Below are positions 2,296 to 21,715 of a stretch of 30,781 nt of DNA, one piece after another. The DNA lies in the IMG/VR virus record IMGVR_UViG_3300027906_002743, positions 1-30,781 of that record, one strand, 5' to 3'. This DNA comes from a virus. The notes beneath the pieces were generated by a model, which saw nothing but the letters and a program-made list of their open reading frames with translations, did no database searches and had not been told where the DNA came from. The position numbers and the translations under genes are program-made. How positions within the stretch are numbered: position 1 is the first letter of the stretch; each line of letters opens with the position of its first letter.

Positions 2296-2303
2296 TATTT
2301 ATG
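2296..2303 (-). promoter_or_regulatory. Late-type promoter CATAAATA for the gp54-gp26 operon
   Basis: Minus-strand CATAAATA (2303 to 2296), mirror image of the plus-strand site at 2266-2273. Its first three bases are the complement of the gp4 ATG. Expected transcription start is near 2290, giving a leader of about 20 bases before gp54. Confidence 0.45.
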
Positions 2304-2741
2304 CCTTCATACAAAGGGAAATATAAGGTAAGAAACTACCGCAAATATAAGGGAGACCCTACTCAGGTAATCTATAGGTCTCTGTGGGAACGAAAGTTCA
2401 TGGAATGGTGTGATAAGAATCCCACAATTCTTGAATGGAGTTCAGAAGAATATATTATCCCCTATAAGGATCCAGTCCTCCGAAAGTGGAGAAGATACTT
2501 CCCAGACTTCTATATGAAGGTCAGAGAAACAAATGGTAAGATCCAAAAATACCTTGTTGAGGTAAAACCTAAGAGGCAAGTCGAAGGTCCAAAACCTCAG
2601 CAAAAGAAAACAAAACAGTATATAACTGAGGTTGCTAATTATGCCACAAACACAGCCAAGTGGAAAGCAGCGGAGCAGTACTGCAGGGACAGGCTTTGGA
2701 AGTTCAAAATCATCACCGAAGTCGAACTCAGAATTCAGTAA
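2301..2741 (+). CDS. 4: gp4-like head completion protein (nuclease fold)
   Basis: 146 residues, close to T4 gp4 (150). The pattern YRSLWERKFMEWCD (about 25-38) followed by PDFYMKV (68-74) and YLVEVKPKRQ (84-93) is the TnsA/PD-(D/E)XK-like arrangement of the gp4 family: Glu in the ERKF helix, Asp in PDF and the E-V-K pair as metal and catalytic residues. gp4 completes filled heads before tail joining. It opens the only plus-strand operon; the following gene starts inside its last 100 bases. Confidence 0.8.
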   Translation: MPSYKGKYKVRNYRKYKGDPTQVIYRSLWERKFMEWCDKNPTILEWSSEEYIIPYKDPVLRKWRRYFPDFYMKVRETNGKIQKYLVEVKPKRQVEGPKPQQKKTKQYITEVANYATNTAKWKAAEQYCRDRLWKFKIITEVELRIQ

Positions 2742-4577: not shown

Positions 4578-5191
4578 TGTTACAAGCTTTACCAGATCTA
4601 TACTATAACATAGGAAAATCGGCACTAGATCCTAAGATACTAGCAGCGAAAAATCTATGGCGTAGAGCAGATATTCTTTCTGAATACAAGAATTCAATCA
4701 CATGGTTTAATGAATACCTTATTAAAAACGGTGAACGACCAGAAGATATTGCACTTGATCTATATAAAAACCCATTCTATAACTGGACTCTCTTAGTCAT
4801 TAATGATATAGTAAATATTTACGAACAATGGCCAAGGTCAGTGAAACAGTTGCAAGAGTATGTAACTGACAAGTATCCTAACCCTGAAGATCACAAACAC
4901 TATGAAACAGTTGAAGTTAAATTTGGTACAAAAATAATTGTACCAGCAGGTAAAATAGTACCATCCAACTTCCAAGTTTCATACTGGAATGGAAGTGTTA
5001 CTGTTACTGCTAACCCAGTAGCATCCGTGACCTACTATCAGTACGAAGAGAAACTAAACTCAGCGAAAGAATCAATACAAGTAATTAGACCTTCTGTTAT
5101 AGAAGATTTTGTAGCTGCTTATGAATCTAGACTTTCAAGAGGTAGTAATCTCAGCTTGGGATTTGATGCCTCAGATCTTGACATGTCTTAA
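4577..5191 (+). CDS. 53: gp53-like baseplate wedge protein
   Basis: 204 residues (T4 gp53 is 196). The first 90 residues carry the family pattern: ITWFNEYLIKNGERPEDIA, then YKNPFYNWTLLVINDI and YEQWPRS. The middle contains an insertion (FGTKIIVPAGKIVPSNFQ) that looks like a small beta domain. gp53 is a wedge component needed for wedges to join around the hub. Its last 41 bases overlap the 3' end of the halogenase gene on the opposite strand. Confidence 0.8.
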   Translation: MLQALPDLYYNIGKSALDPKILAAKNLWRRADILSEYKNSITWFNEYLIKNGERPEDIALDLYKNPFYNWTLLVINDIVNIYEQWPRSVKQLQEYVTDKYPNPEDHKHYETVEVKFGTKIIVPAGKIVPSNFQVSYWNGSVTVTANPVASVTYYQYEEKLNSAKESIQVIRPSVIEDFVAAYESRLSRGSNLSLGFDASDLDMS

Positions 5192-6635
5192 ATGCAGTAG
5201 GTAGTTTCTCAACTGCCTCCTCCCATTGTTTATTGATGTTTAACATATTCACAGTAGTATGTCTAGGTCTATTAAGAGGACATATGTTCATACCTGATGC
5301 AACATAGTGTAGTCCTGCTACAAGATTTCTAAAATTACAGTCACTGTAGATCTCTCTACCGTAAGCAAATAATCCATTAAGATACGTACCGTTATTCAAT
5401 AGAGATTCCTCTAAATTATATTCCTTGTTGAAGACATCCTGCCAATATGGGGTGTCTTCTCTTTGTGTAAAGGCATAGTGTATTGCTACAAAATCTGCTG
5501 TCTGATCAAACTGACGACGAATATCTGAATTATAGTATTGCTTCATTATCTGAGATGGTTTTCCACGTCTCAGTGTCTTAACTAGATCTATAAGGTTCTC
5601 ATGTACCATCATAAGACCATTAGATTCTAATGGTTCAACAAATCCAGCAGATAATCCAATAGCAACGACATTACCTACCCAAGTATTTTCGTGCCTACCG
5701 ACACGCATATGAATCTTCTTGAAAGTACACTCATCAGTATCATACTTGTCACTCAAATGCTCAACTAGCTCTTGCTTTGCATCATCATCACTGGTATACT
5801 TTGAAGAATACACATATCCTGTTCCAACTCCACTCCATAGAGGAATATCCCAGACCCATCCATTATCAATGGCAGTACAGTGAGTATATGCATTAAGTTG
5901 CTTCTCTTTGTCTGTATATGGTACATGAGTAGCCCATGCACGATCATTTGGTAGTAAGTGATCAAATGGGACGAAGGGTTCACCACAAAACTCACCAAGC
6001 AGCAAGCTTCTGAATCCAGTACAGTCTATAAAGAGATCTCCTTCTACCTCCGAACCATCGTCTAATACAAGACTATGGAATGTCCTCTCGTCTGTAGTGA
6101 CGAAATTAACCACGTTGCCAGTTATATACTGTGCTTTCTGACAGTATTTCTTCTTTAAATATTGACCAAACTTTACAGCATCGAAATGGTATGCATAATC
6201 ACCATCTGGTGTTAAAGCAGTATTTGGATCTATTTTACCTCTCTCTGAAACCAGAGCGATGTGATTTATATCTTTTGCGTAATCATTGGGACTTTTATCA
6301 CCATACTTCAGTTGATGTGACCACCACACTTCAGGTAGCAGTGGATTTTTTCCAAAGGGGTAATGAAAACTCCCAGAATTTTTTTCCAGAAAATTGGTAA
6401 ACCGAATACTATGTTTGATAGTACCATCGGTCTCTATTAGAAATTCTTTCTCATCTTCTCTTATTCCTACTATATCTACCCAGTCTTGTATCTGTGCTAA
6501 TGTACTCTCTCCTACTCCAGTCATAGGAATATCTGGAGATTCTATGAGAGTAACCTCATAATCAGGAAGACATTGCAAAAAAGTAGTGGCGGTCATCCAT
6601 CCTGCGGAGCCGCCACCAACGATCACTACTTTCAT
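5151..6635 (-). CDS. Flavin-dependent halogenase (tryptophan halogenase family, VirX1-like)
   Basis: 494 residues. N-terminal FAD-binding motif VVIVGGGSAGW (3-13, GxGxxG type), flavin contact VGESTLAQ (41-48), a candidate catalytic lysine K74 in TIKHSIRF, and WVWDIP at 260-265, which fits the halogenase signature WxWxIP. DCTGFRS (204-210) and PLESNGL are further family landmarks. The enzyme would use FADH2, O2 and halide to make HOX and halogenate an aromatic substrate; a characterised cyanophage relative, VirX1, prefers iodide and has broad substrates (recalled). It follows gp32 with a TAATG overlap, so it is probably co-expressed with it. A free-FADH2 source is not encoded next to it. Family is firm; substrate is unknown. 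Confidence 0.88.
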   Translation of the reverse strand: MKVVIVGGGSAGWMTATTFLQCLPDYEVTLIESPDIPMTGVGESTLAQIQDWVDIVGIREDEKEFLIETDGTIKHSIRFTNFLEKNSGSFHYPFGKNPLLPEVWWSHQLKYGDKSPNDYAKDINHIALVSERGKIDPNTALTPDGDYAYHFDAVKFGQYLKKKYCQKAQYITGNVVNFVTTDERTFHSLVLDDGSEVEGDLFIDCTGFRSLLLGEFCGEPFVPFDHLLPNDRAWATHVPYTDKEKQLNAYTHCTAIDNGWVWDIPLWSGVGTGYVYSSKYTSDDDAKQELVEHLSDKYDTDECTFKKIHMRVGRHENTWVGNVVAIGLSAGFVEPLESNGLMMVHENLIDLVKTLRRGKPSQIMKQYYNSDIRRQFDQTADFVAIHYAFTQREDTPYWQDVFNKEYNLEESLLNNGTYLNGLFAYGREIYSDCNFRNLVAGLHYVASGMNICPLNRPRHTTVNMLNINKQWEEAVEKLPTAFKTCQDLRHQIPS

Positions 6636-7528: not shown

Positions 7529-7760
7529 ACGTATTCTCCGTATTTTTGTATTGTGGTATTGGGTGGGAGATTGGATTAATGATATACCAATAAGGAAGGG
7601 GCATTGCTACATTAGTAGATTTTTACCTCCCTGTATAAGACCCGACTGGTAGGTCGATTCTGTGCGAACACAGCGAGCACCACCTCTGTCTCATCACCTT
7701 AACTAGCCTTATGCCAGCAAGTTTATTCAGTCACTCCCGTATCGAGTAGCGAACCCGATA
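7529..7760 (-). promoter_or_regulatory. Structured 5' leader of gp32 mRNA
   Basis: No convincing gene in this 230-base stretch. From the likely start near 7760, the RNA begins with a 7-bp hairpin (7760-7740, loop TTCGCTA). Further hairpins: CTGTG-TTCG-CACAG (7673-7660) and GACC-GGTC around 7657-7640. The last 70 bases before the GGAG are A/C-rich and largely unpaired, apart from a possible TGGTAT/ATACCA pairing. T4 gp32 represses its own mRNA by binding an unstructured stretch next to a folded leader; the same architecture is inferred here. Confidence 0.45.
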
Positions 7761-7811: not shown

Positions 7812-7901
7812 CTGTAAGGGGTGGAGTCGAACCACCAAGTCCCGCCAGAGCAGAACAGCAGGGAAACAGCCTGCCACGTTTACCAGTTTCGTCACCTTAC
7901 A
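7812..7901 (-). tRNA. Class II tRNA-like gene with anticodon GTT (Asn-type identity, Leu-like body)
   Basis: Minus strand, 90 nt, full cloverleaf by eye: acceptor TGTAAGG/CCTTACA (7 bp, perfect); D arm ACG/CGT with an AAACTGGTAAA loop; anticodon arm GCAGG-CTGTTTC-CCTGC; variable arm GTTCTGC-TCTG-GCGGGAC (7 bp); T arm GGTGG-TTCGACT-CCACC; discriminator G; no encoded CCA. The loop places GTT (Asn) at 34-36. Asn tRNAs are normally class I, but here the variable region is 21 nt and the D arm is Leu-like. U1:A72, G73 and GUU are the usual bacterial Asn identity features. Bases 37-38 are TC where a purine at 37 is usual. It starts eight bases after the synthetase-like gene and is probably cotranscribed with it. 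Confidence 0.8.
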
Positions 7902-7909
7902 TTGAAGCC

Positions 7910-8707
7910 CTATTCAAGGGCTGATATCATACGAGTGATACCGATTCCTCCTCCAGATCTGGGGAAGAAATCAAACTCCAAGAACTTATCAAGTTCATTC
8001 TCGACTCTCTCCTCACCAAATTTTCTATAGAGTAGTGCTGCATACCCACCATCAGAGATAGTGTGGAATGTTTCTCTCATCTGTGCTTTATCAGTACTAC
8101 GTTCAGCAGAACCAATAGTTTCCATACCATTTAGAATCACATCAATCTTACGACTGGTGCCATCGGTATTTCTTGCCATGTTCCAGAATGGTGATGTCCA
8201 CTCAGGGAACTCAGTGATCATACCACGTCCTATAGCAGCTTCATGTCCGTGGTCAAGTTCCTTAACCTTATAGGTATCTGCCCATCCAGCATAAGATTTA
8301 ATACCATCTGTCTCTAACGGCAGACCTAGATGTTCGCAGAGTTCTATCTCCATCGCTTTAAGATCATAGACATCCCCCTTCATTTCAAACTCGAACATAG
8401 GGAAGATAGTCTCGTGTCTACCTGGGACAGGATTAGGTTCTGCCCTATACGACGTTGAGACACAAAAAAACCCTGACTCGTCAGGGTTGGAAAGTAATTC
8501 GTGTTCTAACCACATTTGACCTGTTTGTGGTAGTGGCCAAACATTACCACCGTAATTATATACTGCTACGGTCTCTGGATCTTCACACGCAGCAAGGATG
8601 CTTAAACGATTCTGAGTATGTACCTCAAGAAAACCTTTATCCAAAAAAAATGACCTCATCAGGTCAACTGCATGGGAATATTTTTTAGGATCAATAAGAC
8701 TTGTCAT
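7910..8707 (-). CDS. Class II aminoacyl-tRNA-synthetase-like catalytic core (Asn/Asp type), no anticodon-binding domain
   Basis: 265 residues. Motif 1-like helix MRSFFLDKGFLEV (17-29). Motif 2 SYRAEPNPVPGRH...FEFE (86-108) with Arg88 and Glu90. GMETIGSAER (194-203) matches the AsnRS/AspRS ExxGGxxR-type loop. Motif 3 is GGGIGITR (252-259) with Arg259. LPQTGQMWLEHELL (59-72) corresponds to the AsnRS LxxSGQ... segment. The N-terminal OB-fold anticodon domain of AsnRS/AspRS (about 100 residues or more) is absent. Alternatives are an AsnA-like asparagine synthetase or an EpmA/GluQRS-like modifying ligase. It has its own TATAAATA promoter and ends eight bases before a tRNA gene whose anticodon is GTT, suggesting a dedicated pair. 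Confidence 0.8.
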   Translation of the reverse strand: MTSLIDPKKYSHAVDLMRSFFLDKGFLEVHTQNRLSILAACEDPETVAVYNYGGNVWPLPQTGQMWLEHELLSNPDESGFFCVSTSYRAEPNPVPGRHETIFPMFEFEMKGDVYDLKAMEIELCEHLGLPLETDGIKSYAGWADTYKVKELDHGHEAAIGRGMITEFPEWTSPFWNMARNTDGTSRKIDVILNGMETIGSAERSTDKAQMRETFHTISDGGYAALLYRKFGEERVENELDKFLEFDFFPRSGGGIGITRMISALE

Positions 8708-21005: not shown

Positions 21006-21200
21006 TTATTTAGATTGTTCTACGTCATATTCTATCACAATCTTGCTACTTGAGCGATGTACAGAGTTCAATGTTTCGTACTGATGACATGTACCACCCA
21101 AATCTTTAGCAATCTTGTACAATTCCTCGATCAATTCTTCCTTAGAAGGTTTGATCATGCCCTTAATGAAGGGACTGTCACCCTCAGGTCTATAGATCAT
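21006..21200 (-). CDS. Small hypothetical protein
   Basis: 64 residues; helix SKEELIEELYKIAKDLGG (19-36) and a C-terminal strand KIVIEYDVEQSK. An ATG at 21158 (MIKPSKEEL) is an alternative start. ATGA overlap with pyrE. Confidence 0.55.
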   Translation of the reverse strand: MIYRPEGDSPFIKGMIKPSKEELIEELYKIAKDLGGTCHQYETLNSVHRSSSKIVIEYDVEQSK

Positions 21201-21715
21201 GTGAAGTCATCCAGAGTAAAGAGACTGACTAGTTCAAGGTCGGCATCGGTGAATGGATCTTCGCCATTCTCTCTCCTATCTACGATACATACTACCTTAT
21301 TGACCACGTAACCTGCATCACGTAGTACTTTCACTGCCTTAACTGCACTACCACCTGTAGTCACGACATCCTCAAGGAGTGTCACCACTGTTCCAGTAGG
21401 GAGCAGCGGTCCCTCAATCATTGCTTGAGTACCATATCCCTTAGGTTCCTTACGTACTATAAGAGCATCAAGGTTGGGTGATGTGATAGAGACTCCAGTT
21501 GCTAGTGGGTCACCACCTAAGGTCACACCTGCTACAGCATCACCCTCGCAATGAATCAGCATTGCAGGTGCTATAAGTTTAATGCCCTCATTACTGAGAG
21601 CAACAGGTTTACAATTAATGTAGTGCATACTTGTTGCACCACTTGAGAGAATTATGTCTCCGTATCGGTATTGTTCTCCGAGGAGTTCTCTAAGTCTATT
21701 GGTTCCAGTGGCCAT
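21197..21715 (-). CDS. pyrE: Orotate phosphoribosyltransferase
   Basis: 172 residues. PRPP-binding loop VTLLEDVVTTGGSA (111-124), GDIILSSGATSMHYINCKP (19-37) with the OPRT catalytic start, AGVTLGGDPLA and VRKEPKGYGT (87-96) substrate loop. Makes OMP from orotate. Somewhat short but complete in motifs. Confidence 0.9.
   Translation of the reverse strand: MATGTNRLRELLGEQYRYGDIILSSGATSMHYINCKPVALSNEGIKLIAPAMLIHCEGDAVAGVTLGGDPLATGVSITSPNLDALIVRKEPKGYGTQAMIEGPLLPTGTVVTLLEDVVTTGGSAVKAVKVLRDAGYVVNKVVCIVDRRENGEDPFTDADLELVSLFTLDDFT

What the first reader, a model, noticed from the sequence alone, without database searches (positions are those of the whole stretch)
7812..7901. Class II tRNA body with an asparagine anticodon
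All stems are perfect or nearly so. A 21-nt variable region with a 7-bp stem and a Leu-like D arm are combined with GTT, U1:A72 and G73. Class II bodies belong to Leu, Ser and bacterial Tyr; Asn tRNAs are class I. Bases 37-38 are TC, unusual for a functional anticodon loop. It may insert Asn at phage codons, misread, resist host anticodon nucleases, or be an adapted non-translational RNA.
Basis: seen in the sequence. Interest (0 to 1): 0.85.

Follow-up and report, generated by a model that had tools for sequence, protein, structure and literature searches.

The report
Phage tRNA with its own synthetase
A marine cyanophage carries a strange asparagine-type transfer RNA directly behind a gene that looks like its own private charging enzyme; the two travel together between phage genomes, which suggests a small, self-contained tRNA system that does not depend on the host's enzymes.

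Summary
In detail: 7812-7901 (minus strand) is a class II tRNA with anticodon GUU, U1:A72, G73, U37 and C38. It is not a freak. Eight bases upstream, 7910-8707 encodes a 265-aa class II aminoacyl-tRNA synthetase core (Pfam D/K/N family) closest in fold to asparaginyl-tRNA synthetase, with no anticodon-binding domain. Relatives of the enzyme are followed by the same tRNA: 80 of 80 parseable tRNAs (55 distinct) have G73, U1:A72, GUUU at 34-37 and full stems. Starting from the tRNA instead, 104 of 117 loci have the enzyme just upstream; the other 13 are three non-tRNA chance matches and ten contigs cut just upstream. Stems covary strongly. Most likely the enzyme charges this tRNA, probably with asparagine, as a host-independent pair; charging, amino acid and use are inferred. 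U37 (and C33 in 16 of 80) is odd for a decoding tRNA. Tree and gene context link the enzyme family to bacterial pyrimidine operons, so a non-ribosomal role is open. My paper searches found no description of the pair.

The parts
7812..7901 (-). tRNA-Asn(GUU) with class II body; 90 nt without CCA
   Evidence: ARAGORN; cloverleaf parse 17/17 pairs
7863..7869 (-). Anticodon loop CTGTTTC: U33, G34 U35 U36, U37, C38
   Evidence: U37 in 80 of 80 parsed relatives
7837..7857 (-). 21-nt variable region (class II arm)
   Evidence: 14-29 nt in relatives
7910..8707 (-). 265-aa class II aminoacyl-tRNA synthetase core, AsnRS-like, no anticodon-binding domain
   Evidence: Pfam PF00152 53 bits (cut-off 25); AlphaFold2 pLDDT 92, best structural matches AsnRS
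7906..7922 (-). Hairpin at the end of the synthetase ORF, stop codon TAG in it, 4 nt before the tRNA
   Evidence: 58 of 58 distinct 34-nt leaders fold, -7.1 to -12.1 kcal/mol
7560..7760 (-). manA RNA (RF01745), between the tRNA and the gp32-like SSB gene; neighbour, probably not part of the unit
   Evidence: Rfam 152.9 bits; not found in L002, L003 or 14 other loci searched
21197..21715 (-). PyrE-like (orotate phosphoribosyltransferase-like) gene; possible functional partner
   Evidence: tblastn hit; 51-53% identical to genes annotated orotate phosphoribosyltransferase in P-SSM2/P-SSM5/P-SSM7; Pfam PF00156 23 bits, below its cut-off 26.3

Best explanation
A phage-borne synthetase-tRNA pair. 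The gene at 7910-8707 makes a stripped-down, AsnRS-like class II synthetase; the tRNA that follows it, probably in the same transcript, is its substrate. Having no anticodon-binding domain, the enzyme most likely recognises the acceptor end (U1:A72, G73) and the Leu-like class II body, attaches asparagine, and so gives the phage a supply of Asn-tRNA that neither needs nor competes for the host's asparaginylation machinery. The GUU anticodon is kept for reading AAU/AAC. U37, which cannot carry the t6A made on A37 (recalled), most plausibly marks a tRNA altered to escape a host nuclease or modification. Shown: the tRNA, the adjacent enzyme with a synthetase fold, their linkage and conservation. 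Inferred: co-transcription, charging, asparagine, recognition mode, decoding, the reason for U37.
For: Enzyme to tRNA: all 80 parseable downstream regions (83 of 84 loci had more than 60 nt; 3 of these are cut inside the tRNA) hold the tRNA 7-12 nt after the stop; the four cut loci begin like it. tRNA to enzyme: 104 of 117. G73 and U1:A72 80/80 and 111/111 (overlapping set). Covariation. Fold: AsnRS Z 26.2, 242 of 265 residues, 22% identity; AspRS 24.7, archaeal asparagine synthetase A 23.8, LysRS 23.3. Profile best PDB hits are AsnRSs. At the pocket the family has L67-E68 as AsnRS has L-E, where AspRS has K-Q (alignments; role of that Lys recalled); L67, E68, R88, E90, R203, R259 are the same in 107 of 107 sequences. 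P-SSM2 is listed with a single tRNA (Table 1 of PMC3037559), and ARAGORN found only this one in the P-SSM2 stretch fetched.
Against: No charging data. U37 in 80 of 80 and C33 in 16 of 80 are poor for decoding. No sign of codon compensation: Asn codons are 4.5% and 5.3% in stretches of two pair-bearing phages and 7.2% in one without (different regions). Enzyme relatives at about 45-65% identity mostly lack the tRNA, so the family's older job needs no private tRNA, and many sit beside pyrimidine genes. AsnRS leads AspRS and asparagine synthetase A by only 1.5-2.4 Z. The NCBIfam asnS model scores 13.8 bits against a cut-off of 342.6.
Confidence: 0.5

Rival explanations
1. Same pair, but the aminoacyl-tRNA is used off the ribosome, as an activated amino acid in a phage metabolic step, perhaps connected with orotate and pyrimidine synthesis. 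The abnormal anticodon loop would keep it out of translation.
For: U37 80/80 and C33 16/80. Bacterial relatives of the enzyme lie next to pyrF, pyrE, pyrD. tRNA-bearing L089 and L094 have DHO-dehydrogenase-like neighbours (L094's is below the Pfam cut-off). All 6 isolate-phage records with the enzyme also hold a PyrE-like gene, and the window does.
Against: GUU is invariant although the enzyme cannot read it. PyrE-like genes also occur without the enzyme (7 of 13 phage records; 2 of 17 enzyme-negative records) and 5 of 13 enzyme-positive records lack PyrE (fragments included). The 595-kb phage with PyrE and PyrD-like genes has no enzyme match. No chemistry is known to me that links Asn-tRNA to orotate.
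Confidence: 0.2
2. A defence-evasion tRNA: it replaces host tRNA-Asn destroyed by an anticodon nuclease, with U37/C38 and the class II body making it uncleavable; the enzyme is there because host AsnRS cannot charge it. Overlaps with the best explanation.
For: Phage tRNAs with altered anticodon loops are predicted to resist host tRNases (PMC10264068, abstract and passages). U37 in 77/77 family tRNAs against purine 37 in 87 of 89 others.
Against: That paper's text has no hit for 'Asn' or 'position 37'. No nuclease aimed at tRNA-Asn in picocyanobacteria is known to me. P0001 has no PADLOC match. Simple avoidance would allow C37, which was never seen among the 80.
Confidence: 0.2
3. Host SerRS charges it (class II arm plus G73), so it inserts serine at Asn codons; the neighbouring gene is irrelevant.
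For: Class II arm and G73 are met; that G73 turns a Leu tRNA into a Ser acceptor is recalled.
Against: Linkage to an AsnRS-like gene wherever testable; mistranslation at AAY would be costly.
Confidence: 0.04
4. U37 extends the anticodon to GUUU, which reads AAAY as a four-base codon or works best after a codon ending in A.
For: 34-37 is GUUU in 80/80, so U37 is kept, not just any pyrimidine.
Against: Codons before AAY end in A no more often in pair-bearing phage DNA: 0.207 and 0.241 against 0.305 and 0.302 before other codons. No frameshift site was looked for.
Confidence: 0.03
5. The protein is an ammonia-dependent asparagine synthetase A and its neighbour an ordinary tRNA kept by chance.
For: Archaeal asparagine synthetase A is nearly as good a structural match (Z 23.8), also a single domain of about 290 aa.
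Against: Conserved adjacency from both directions and conserved odd tRNA features.
Confidence: 0.05

Closest known systems
Asparaginyl-tRNA synthetase, class IIb (PF00152; e.g. human 8h53, P. horikoshii 1x54)
   Same: Catalytic fold, motif 2 Arg/Glu and motif 3 Arg, L-E pocket pair
   Different: No N-terminal anticodon-binding domain; far below the asnS model cut-off; 22% identity; substrate tRNA is class II
Archaeal asparagine synthetase A (3reu/3rex)
   Same: Single-domain AsnRS/AspRS relative of similar size and fold (Z 23.8)
   Different: No private tRNA is known for it (recalled); activity not tested here
tRNA-Asn (class I)
   Same: GUU anticodon, G73, U1:A72 (E. coli features recalled)
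   Different: Long variable arm, Leu-type D arm, U37 instead of A37
tRNA-Leu (class II)
   Same: D-arm layout and long variable arm; best model hits in cell genomes are mostly tRNA-Leu
   Different: G73 instead of A73, GUU anticodon
PylRS/tRNA-Pyl type private pairs (recalled)
   Same: Linked synthetase and odd tRNA, anticodon-independent recognition expected
   Different: Sense-codon Asn anticodon, phage genomes, AsnRS-like enzyme
T4-GC 194 'tRNA ligase' of P-SSM2 and P-SSM7 (PMC3037559)
   Same: It is this enzyme family; the 2010 table lists it in two of 16 cyanophages (GC number)
   Different: No function, amino acid or tRNA link was given in the passages I read

Membership tests
tRNA-Asn, canonical class I | GUU anticodon | tested here: met
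tRNA-Asn, canonical class I | G73 discriminator | tested here: met
   80/80
tRNA-Asn, canonical class I | short variable loop | tested here: not met
   21 nt here, 14-29 in relatives
tRNA-Asn, canonical class I | A37 (t6A site) | tested here: not met
   U37 80/80; other tRNAs in the loci 87 of 89 purine
tRNA-Leu | A73 and Leu anticodon | tested here: not met
   G73, GUU
Class II synthetase, D/K/N catalytic domain (PF00152) | Pfam score over cut-off | tested here: met
   53 bits against 25
Class II synthetase, D/K/N catalytic domain (PF00152) | conserved active-site residues (R88, E90, R203, R259) | tested here: met
   107/107; equivalence to motifs 2 and 3 partly recalled
Asparaginyl-tRNA synthetase | asnS family score over cut-off | tested here: not met
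   13.8 bits against 342.6
Asparaginyl-tRNA synthetase | N-terminal anticodon-binding domain | tested here: not met
   the whole 265-aa model aligns to the catalytic part of AsnRS chains
Asparaginyl-tRNA synthetase | AsnRS-type pocket (L-E, not K-Q) | tested here: met
   alignments; invariance
Asparaginyl-tRNA synthetase | charges tRNA with Asn | not testable with these tools
   needs an assay
Archaeal asparagine synthetase A | same fold | tested here: inconclusive
   Z 23.8 against 26.2 for AsnRS
Private synthetase-tRNA pair | stable genetic linkage | tested here: met
Private synthetase-tRNA pair | mutual specificity in vivo | not testable with these tools
   needs an assay

The most novel reading that the evidence does not exclude
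The pair makes a dedicated aminoacyl-tRNA that is not for translation: the phage took an AsnRS-like enzyme that serves an unusual, CarAB/PyrB-independent pyrimidine route in bacteria and coupled it to a private class II tRNA whose loop (U37, sometimes C33) keeps it off the ribosome, giving a tRNA-dependent metabolic step.
Probability: 0.12. Interest if true: 0.95.

Novelty: new variant of a known kind. Interest (0 to 1): 0.8.

Why it matters
Phages are thought to borrow the host's charging enzymes. A widespread marine phage cassette with its own synthetase and a tRNA that breaks two near-universal rules (class I body for Asn, purine at 37) would show that phages can carry private branches of the genetic-code machinery. 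It also gives a natural small AsnRS-like/class II tRNA pair that may work as an orthogonal pair in engineering, and makes the old question of why phages keep tRNAs testable in a culturable system (P-SSM2, P-SSM7).

Tried and rejected
Class II Leu tRNA with a mutated anticodon, recent or decaying: rejected, because all 80 parsed relatives keep G73, U1:A72, GUUU and full stems with covariation. RNA ligase or tRNA repair (the public name 'tRNA ligase'): rejected, Pfam gives PF00152 and the fold is a class II synthetase. Standard tRNA hidden elsewhere in bacterial relatives: the R1 model found the GUU class II tRNA only in the four genomes whose contig carries the pair (L089, L090, L094, L159); elsewhere it hit tRNA-Leu, or tRNA-Met in one genome, among the best hits fetched (L096 not held, L087's 20-kb record had no hit). 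Codon compensation and A-before-AAY context: no support. Megaphage LR756511 with PyrE and PyrD-like genes: no enzyme match with A3. PADLOC: no match. Luque et al. on cyanobacterial synthetases: not held, so host AsnRS/GatCAB use was not settled. Rows dropped before counts: L005, L010, L052, L060 (contig ends) from the tRNA parse; L120 and L161 (stops) from alignments or tree. A result against tidy conservation: the tRNA of L159 has an imperfect acceptor end (T1xC72, C2xC71, A73; sequence, my reading), lies about 210 nt after the gene and was left out of A4.

Full report
What is there. The window is a fragment of a T4-like marine cyanophage: baseplate genes, psbA, a bilin-reductase gene, a gp32-like SSB gene; it is a 30,781-base virus record. 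Its only tRNA is tRNA-Asn(gtt) at 7812-7901 on the minus strand. The parse gives 17 of 17 stem pairs, loop CTGTTTC, a 21-nt variable region, T1:A72 and G73.

The partner. The ORF 7910-8707 ends 8 bases before the tRNA, on the same strand. It scores 53 bits (cut-off 25) with PF00152, class II tRNA synthetases D, K and N, and nothing else in Pfam at E 0.01. Public records of P-SSM2, P-SSM5 and P-SSM7 call it 'tRNA ligase' and have a tRNA-Asn right behind it. An AlphaFold2 model (pLDDT 92, pTM 0.90) matches asparaginyl-tRNA synthetase best: Z 26.2 over 242 residues, against 24.7 for AspRS, 23.8 for archaeal asparagine synthetase A and 23.3 for LysRS. The gaps are small. In alignments the pocket pair L67-E68 equals AsnRS (L-E) and not AspRS (K-Q); these two and R88, E90, R203 and R259 are the same in 107 of 107 sequences. 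There is no room for an anticodon-binding domain.

Linkage, both ways. With three phage records and the window this makes 84 loci, of which 83 had more than 60 nt downstream; 80 gave a complete tRNA 7-12 nt after the stop, and the other four contigs end inside it. There are 55 distinct sequences, and some loci are the same phage (L002 and L025 are both P-SSM7). From the tRNA: a pattern scan returned 117 readable loci; 104 have the enzyme upstream (103 within 40 nt, one at 93), three are chance matches that are not tRNAs, and ten contigs stop within 125 nt upstream. So in every locus where it could be tested the two stand together. The pattern forced GTTT, so only the first set counts for the anticodon.

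Conservation. In the 80: G73 80, T1:A72 80, GTTT at 34-37 80; loops CTGTTTA 35, TTGTTTC 18, CCGTTTA 16, CTGTTTC 11; variable region 14-29 nt. In the overlapping second set: G73 and T1:A72 111 of 111 parsed; 19 of these encode CCA and belong to enzymes about 66-68% identical to the window's (two partial ones 59-61%, one cut off). Sixteen tRNAs aligned show 98.9% paired cells and 18 of 23 pairs with double changes. Of 89 other tRNAs in the loci then in hand, 87 have a purine at 37; one exception is a misframed member of this family and the other a poor tRNA-Met call. U37, with C33 in 16 of 80, is therefore a real oddity.

A hairpin holding the stop codon stands just before the tRNA in the window, and 58 of 58 distinct leaders fold into such a hairpin. 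I infer that it seals the 3' end of the enzyme mRNA once RNase P frees the tRNA.

Origin. Enzyme relatives at 50-70% identity occur in bacterial and archaeal assemblies. In a quick tree of 98 rows the 20 tRNA-bearing rows fall in one group of 23 (SH-aLRT 91; two changes of state). Elsewhere the tRNA is missing from the contig and, in the genomes searched, from the best whole-genome hits. The simplest reading is that a stand-alone enzyme gained a tRNA partner once. L090 and L091 carry phage-type DNA polymerase and ribonucleotide reductase genes, so some 'bacterial' contigs are probably phage.

What the older enzyme does. Near it lie pyrF in L095, L110, L119 (Pasteurella atlantica) and, by blast, L122 and L123; PyrE-PyrF and PyrD in L131; PyrE, an amidohydrolase and a lyase in L124. 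By tblastn, 21 of 84 distant loci have a pyrimidine-gene hit within their flanks, some weak, no chance control made. Of 13 such cell genomes 2 have PyrB over the cut-off and 1 has CarB; both models ring in 14 of 14 control genomes. Several are incomplete or symbiont genomes, and 6 of 15 records searched have a normal AsnRS over the cut-off. In phages: all six isolate records with the enzyme (two species) have a PyrE-like gene, and 512 phage records hold psbA; but seven PyrE-bearing records have no enzyme match. In 30 larger records, 8 of 13 enzyme-positive and 2 of 17 enzyme-negative have PyrE; most are fragments and P-SSM7 counts twice. This is a lead, not a proof.

Mechanism. I commit to a private pair: the enzyme charges the tRNA, most likely with asparagine, reading the acceptor end and class II body; the product most likely serves phage translation at AAY codons. 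My estimates fall at each step: pair and substrate about 0.8, asparagine about 0.75 given charging, translation a little over half given both; the 0.5 I give the whole statement covers charging with asparagine for the phage's own supply, with translation as the likeliest use. The weak step is translation, because U37 and C33 are poor for decoding, and two pair-bearing phage stretches show neither more Asn codons nor more A before AAY than a pair-free one.

Literature. Searches for cyanophage or phage with asparaginyl-tRNA synthetase, P-SSM2 with tRNA-Asn or tRNA ligase, phage-encoded synthetases with cognate tRNA, and AsnRS with pyrimidine synthesis gave no description of the pair (listings; open-licence papers only). 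I read passages of PMC3037559, PMC7824862, PMC10264068 (abstract and passages), PMC2864571 and PMC9964418. The tRNA itself is annotated in public records, so its existence is not new; the pairing, the conserved odd loop and the enzyme's identity are, as far as I searched.

Noticed in passing
L095, L110, L119, L122, L123, L124, L131, L134, L140: Bacterial relatives of the mini-synthetase sit in pyrimidine operons (pyrF/pyrE/pyrD), and 11 of 13 such genomes lack PyrB over the cut-off and 12 of 13 lack CarB. It may be an unknown route to dihydroorotate, for example from aspartate or asparagine.
   Followed up: partly
window 7560-7760: A strong manA RNA (RF01745, 152.9 bits) stands between the tRNA and the gp32-like SSB gene; no manA was found in 16 relative or isolate loci searched.
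   Followed up: partly
window 7906-7922: Hairpin containing the synthetase stop codon directly before the tRNA; 58 of 58 distinct leaders fold, with changing stem sequences.
   Followed up: partly
L202, L211, L223, L227, L250, L272 and others (19 loci): A second clade of the pair with encoded CCA and mostly short variable arms, in contigs with DnaB/DNA-polymerase or clamp-loader genes.
   Followed up: partly
L085 about 2730-2920: A structured-looking leader (long interrupted inverted repeat) just upstream of the synthetase in the 735-kb phage LR756501; no Rfam hit.
   Followed up: no
window 5151-6635: Tryptophan-halogenase-like gene (PF04820, E 2.9e-108) in the phage.
   Followed up: no
window 2301-2741: TnsA-like endonuclease N-terminal domain (PF08722) near baseplate genes.
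   Followed up: no
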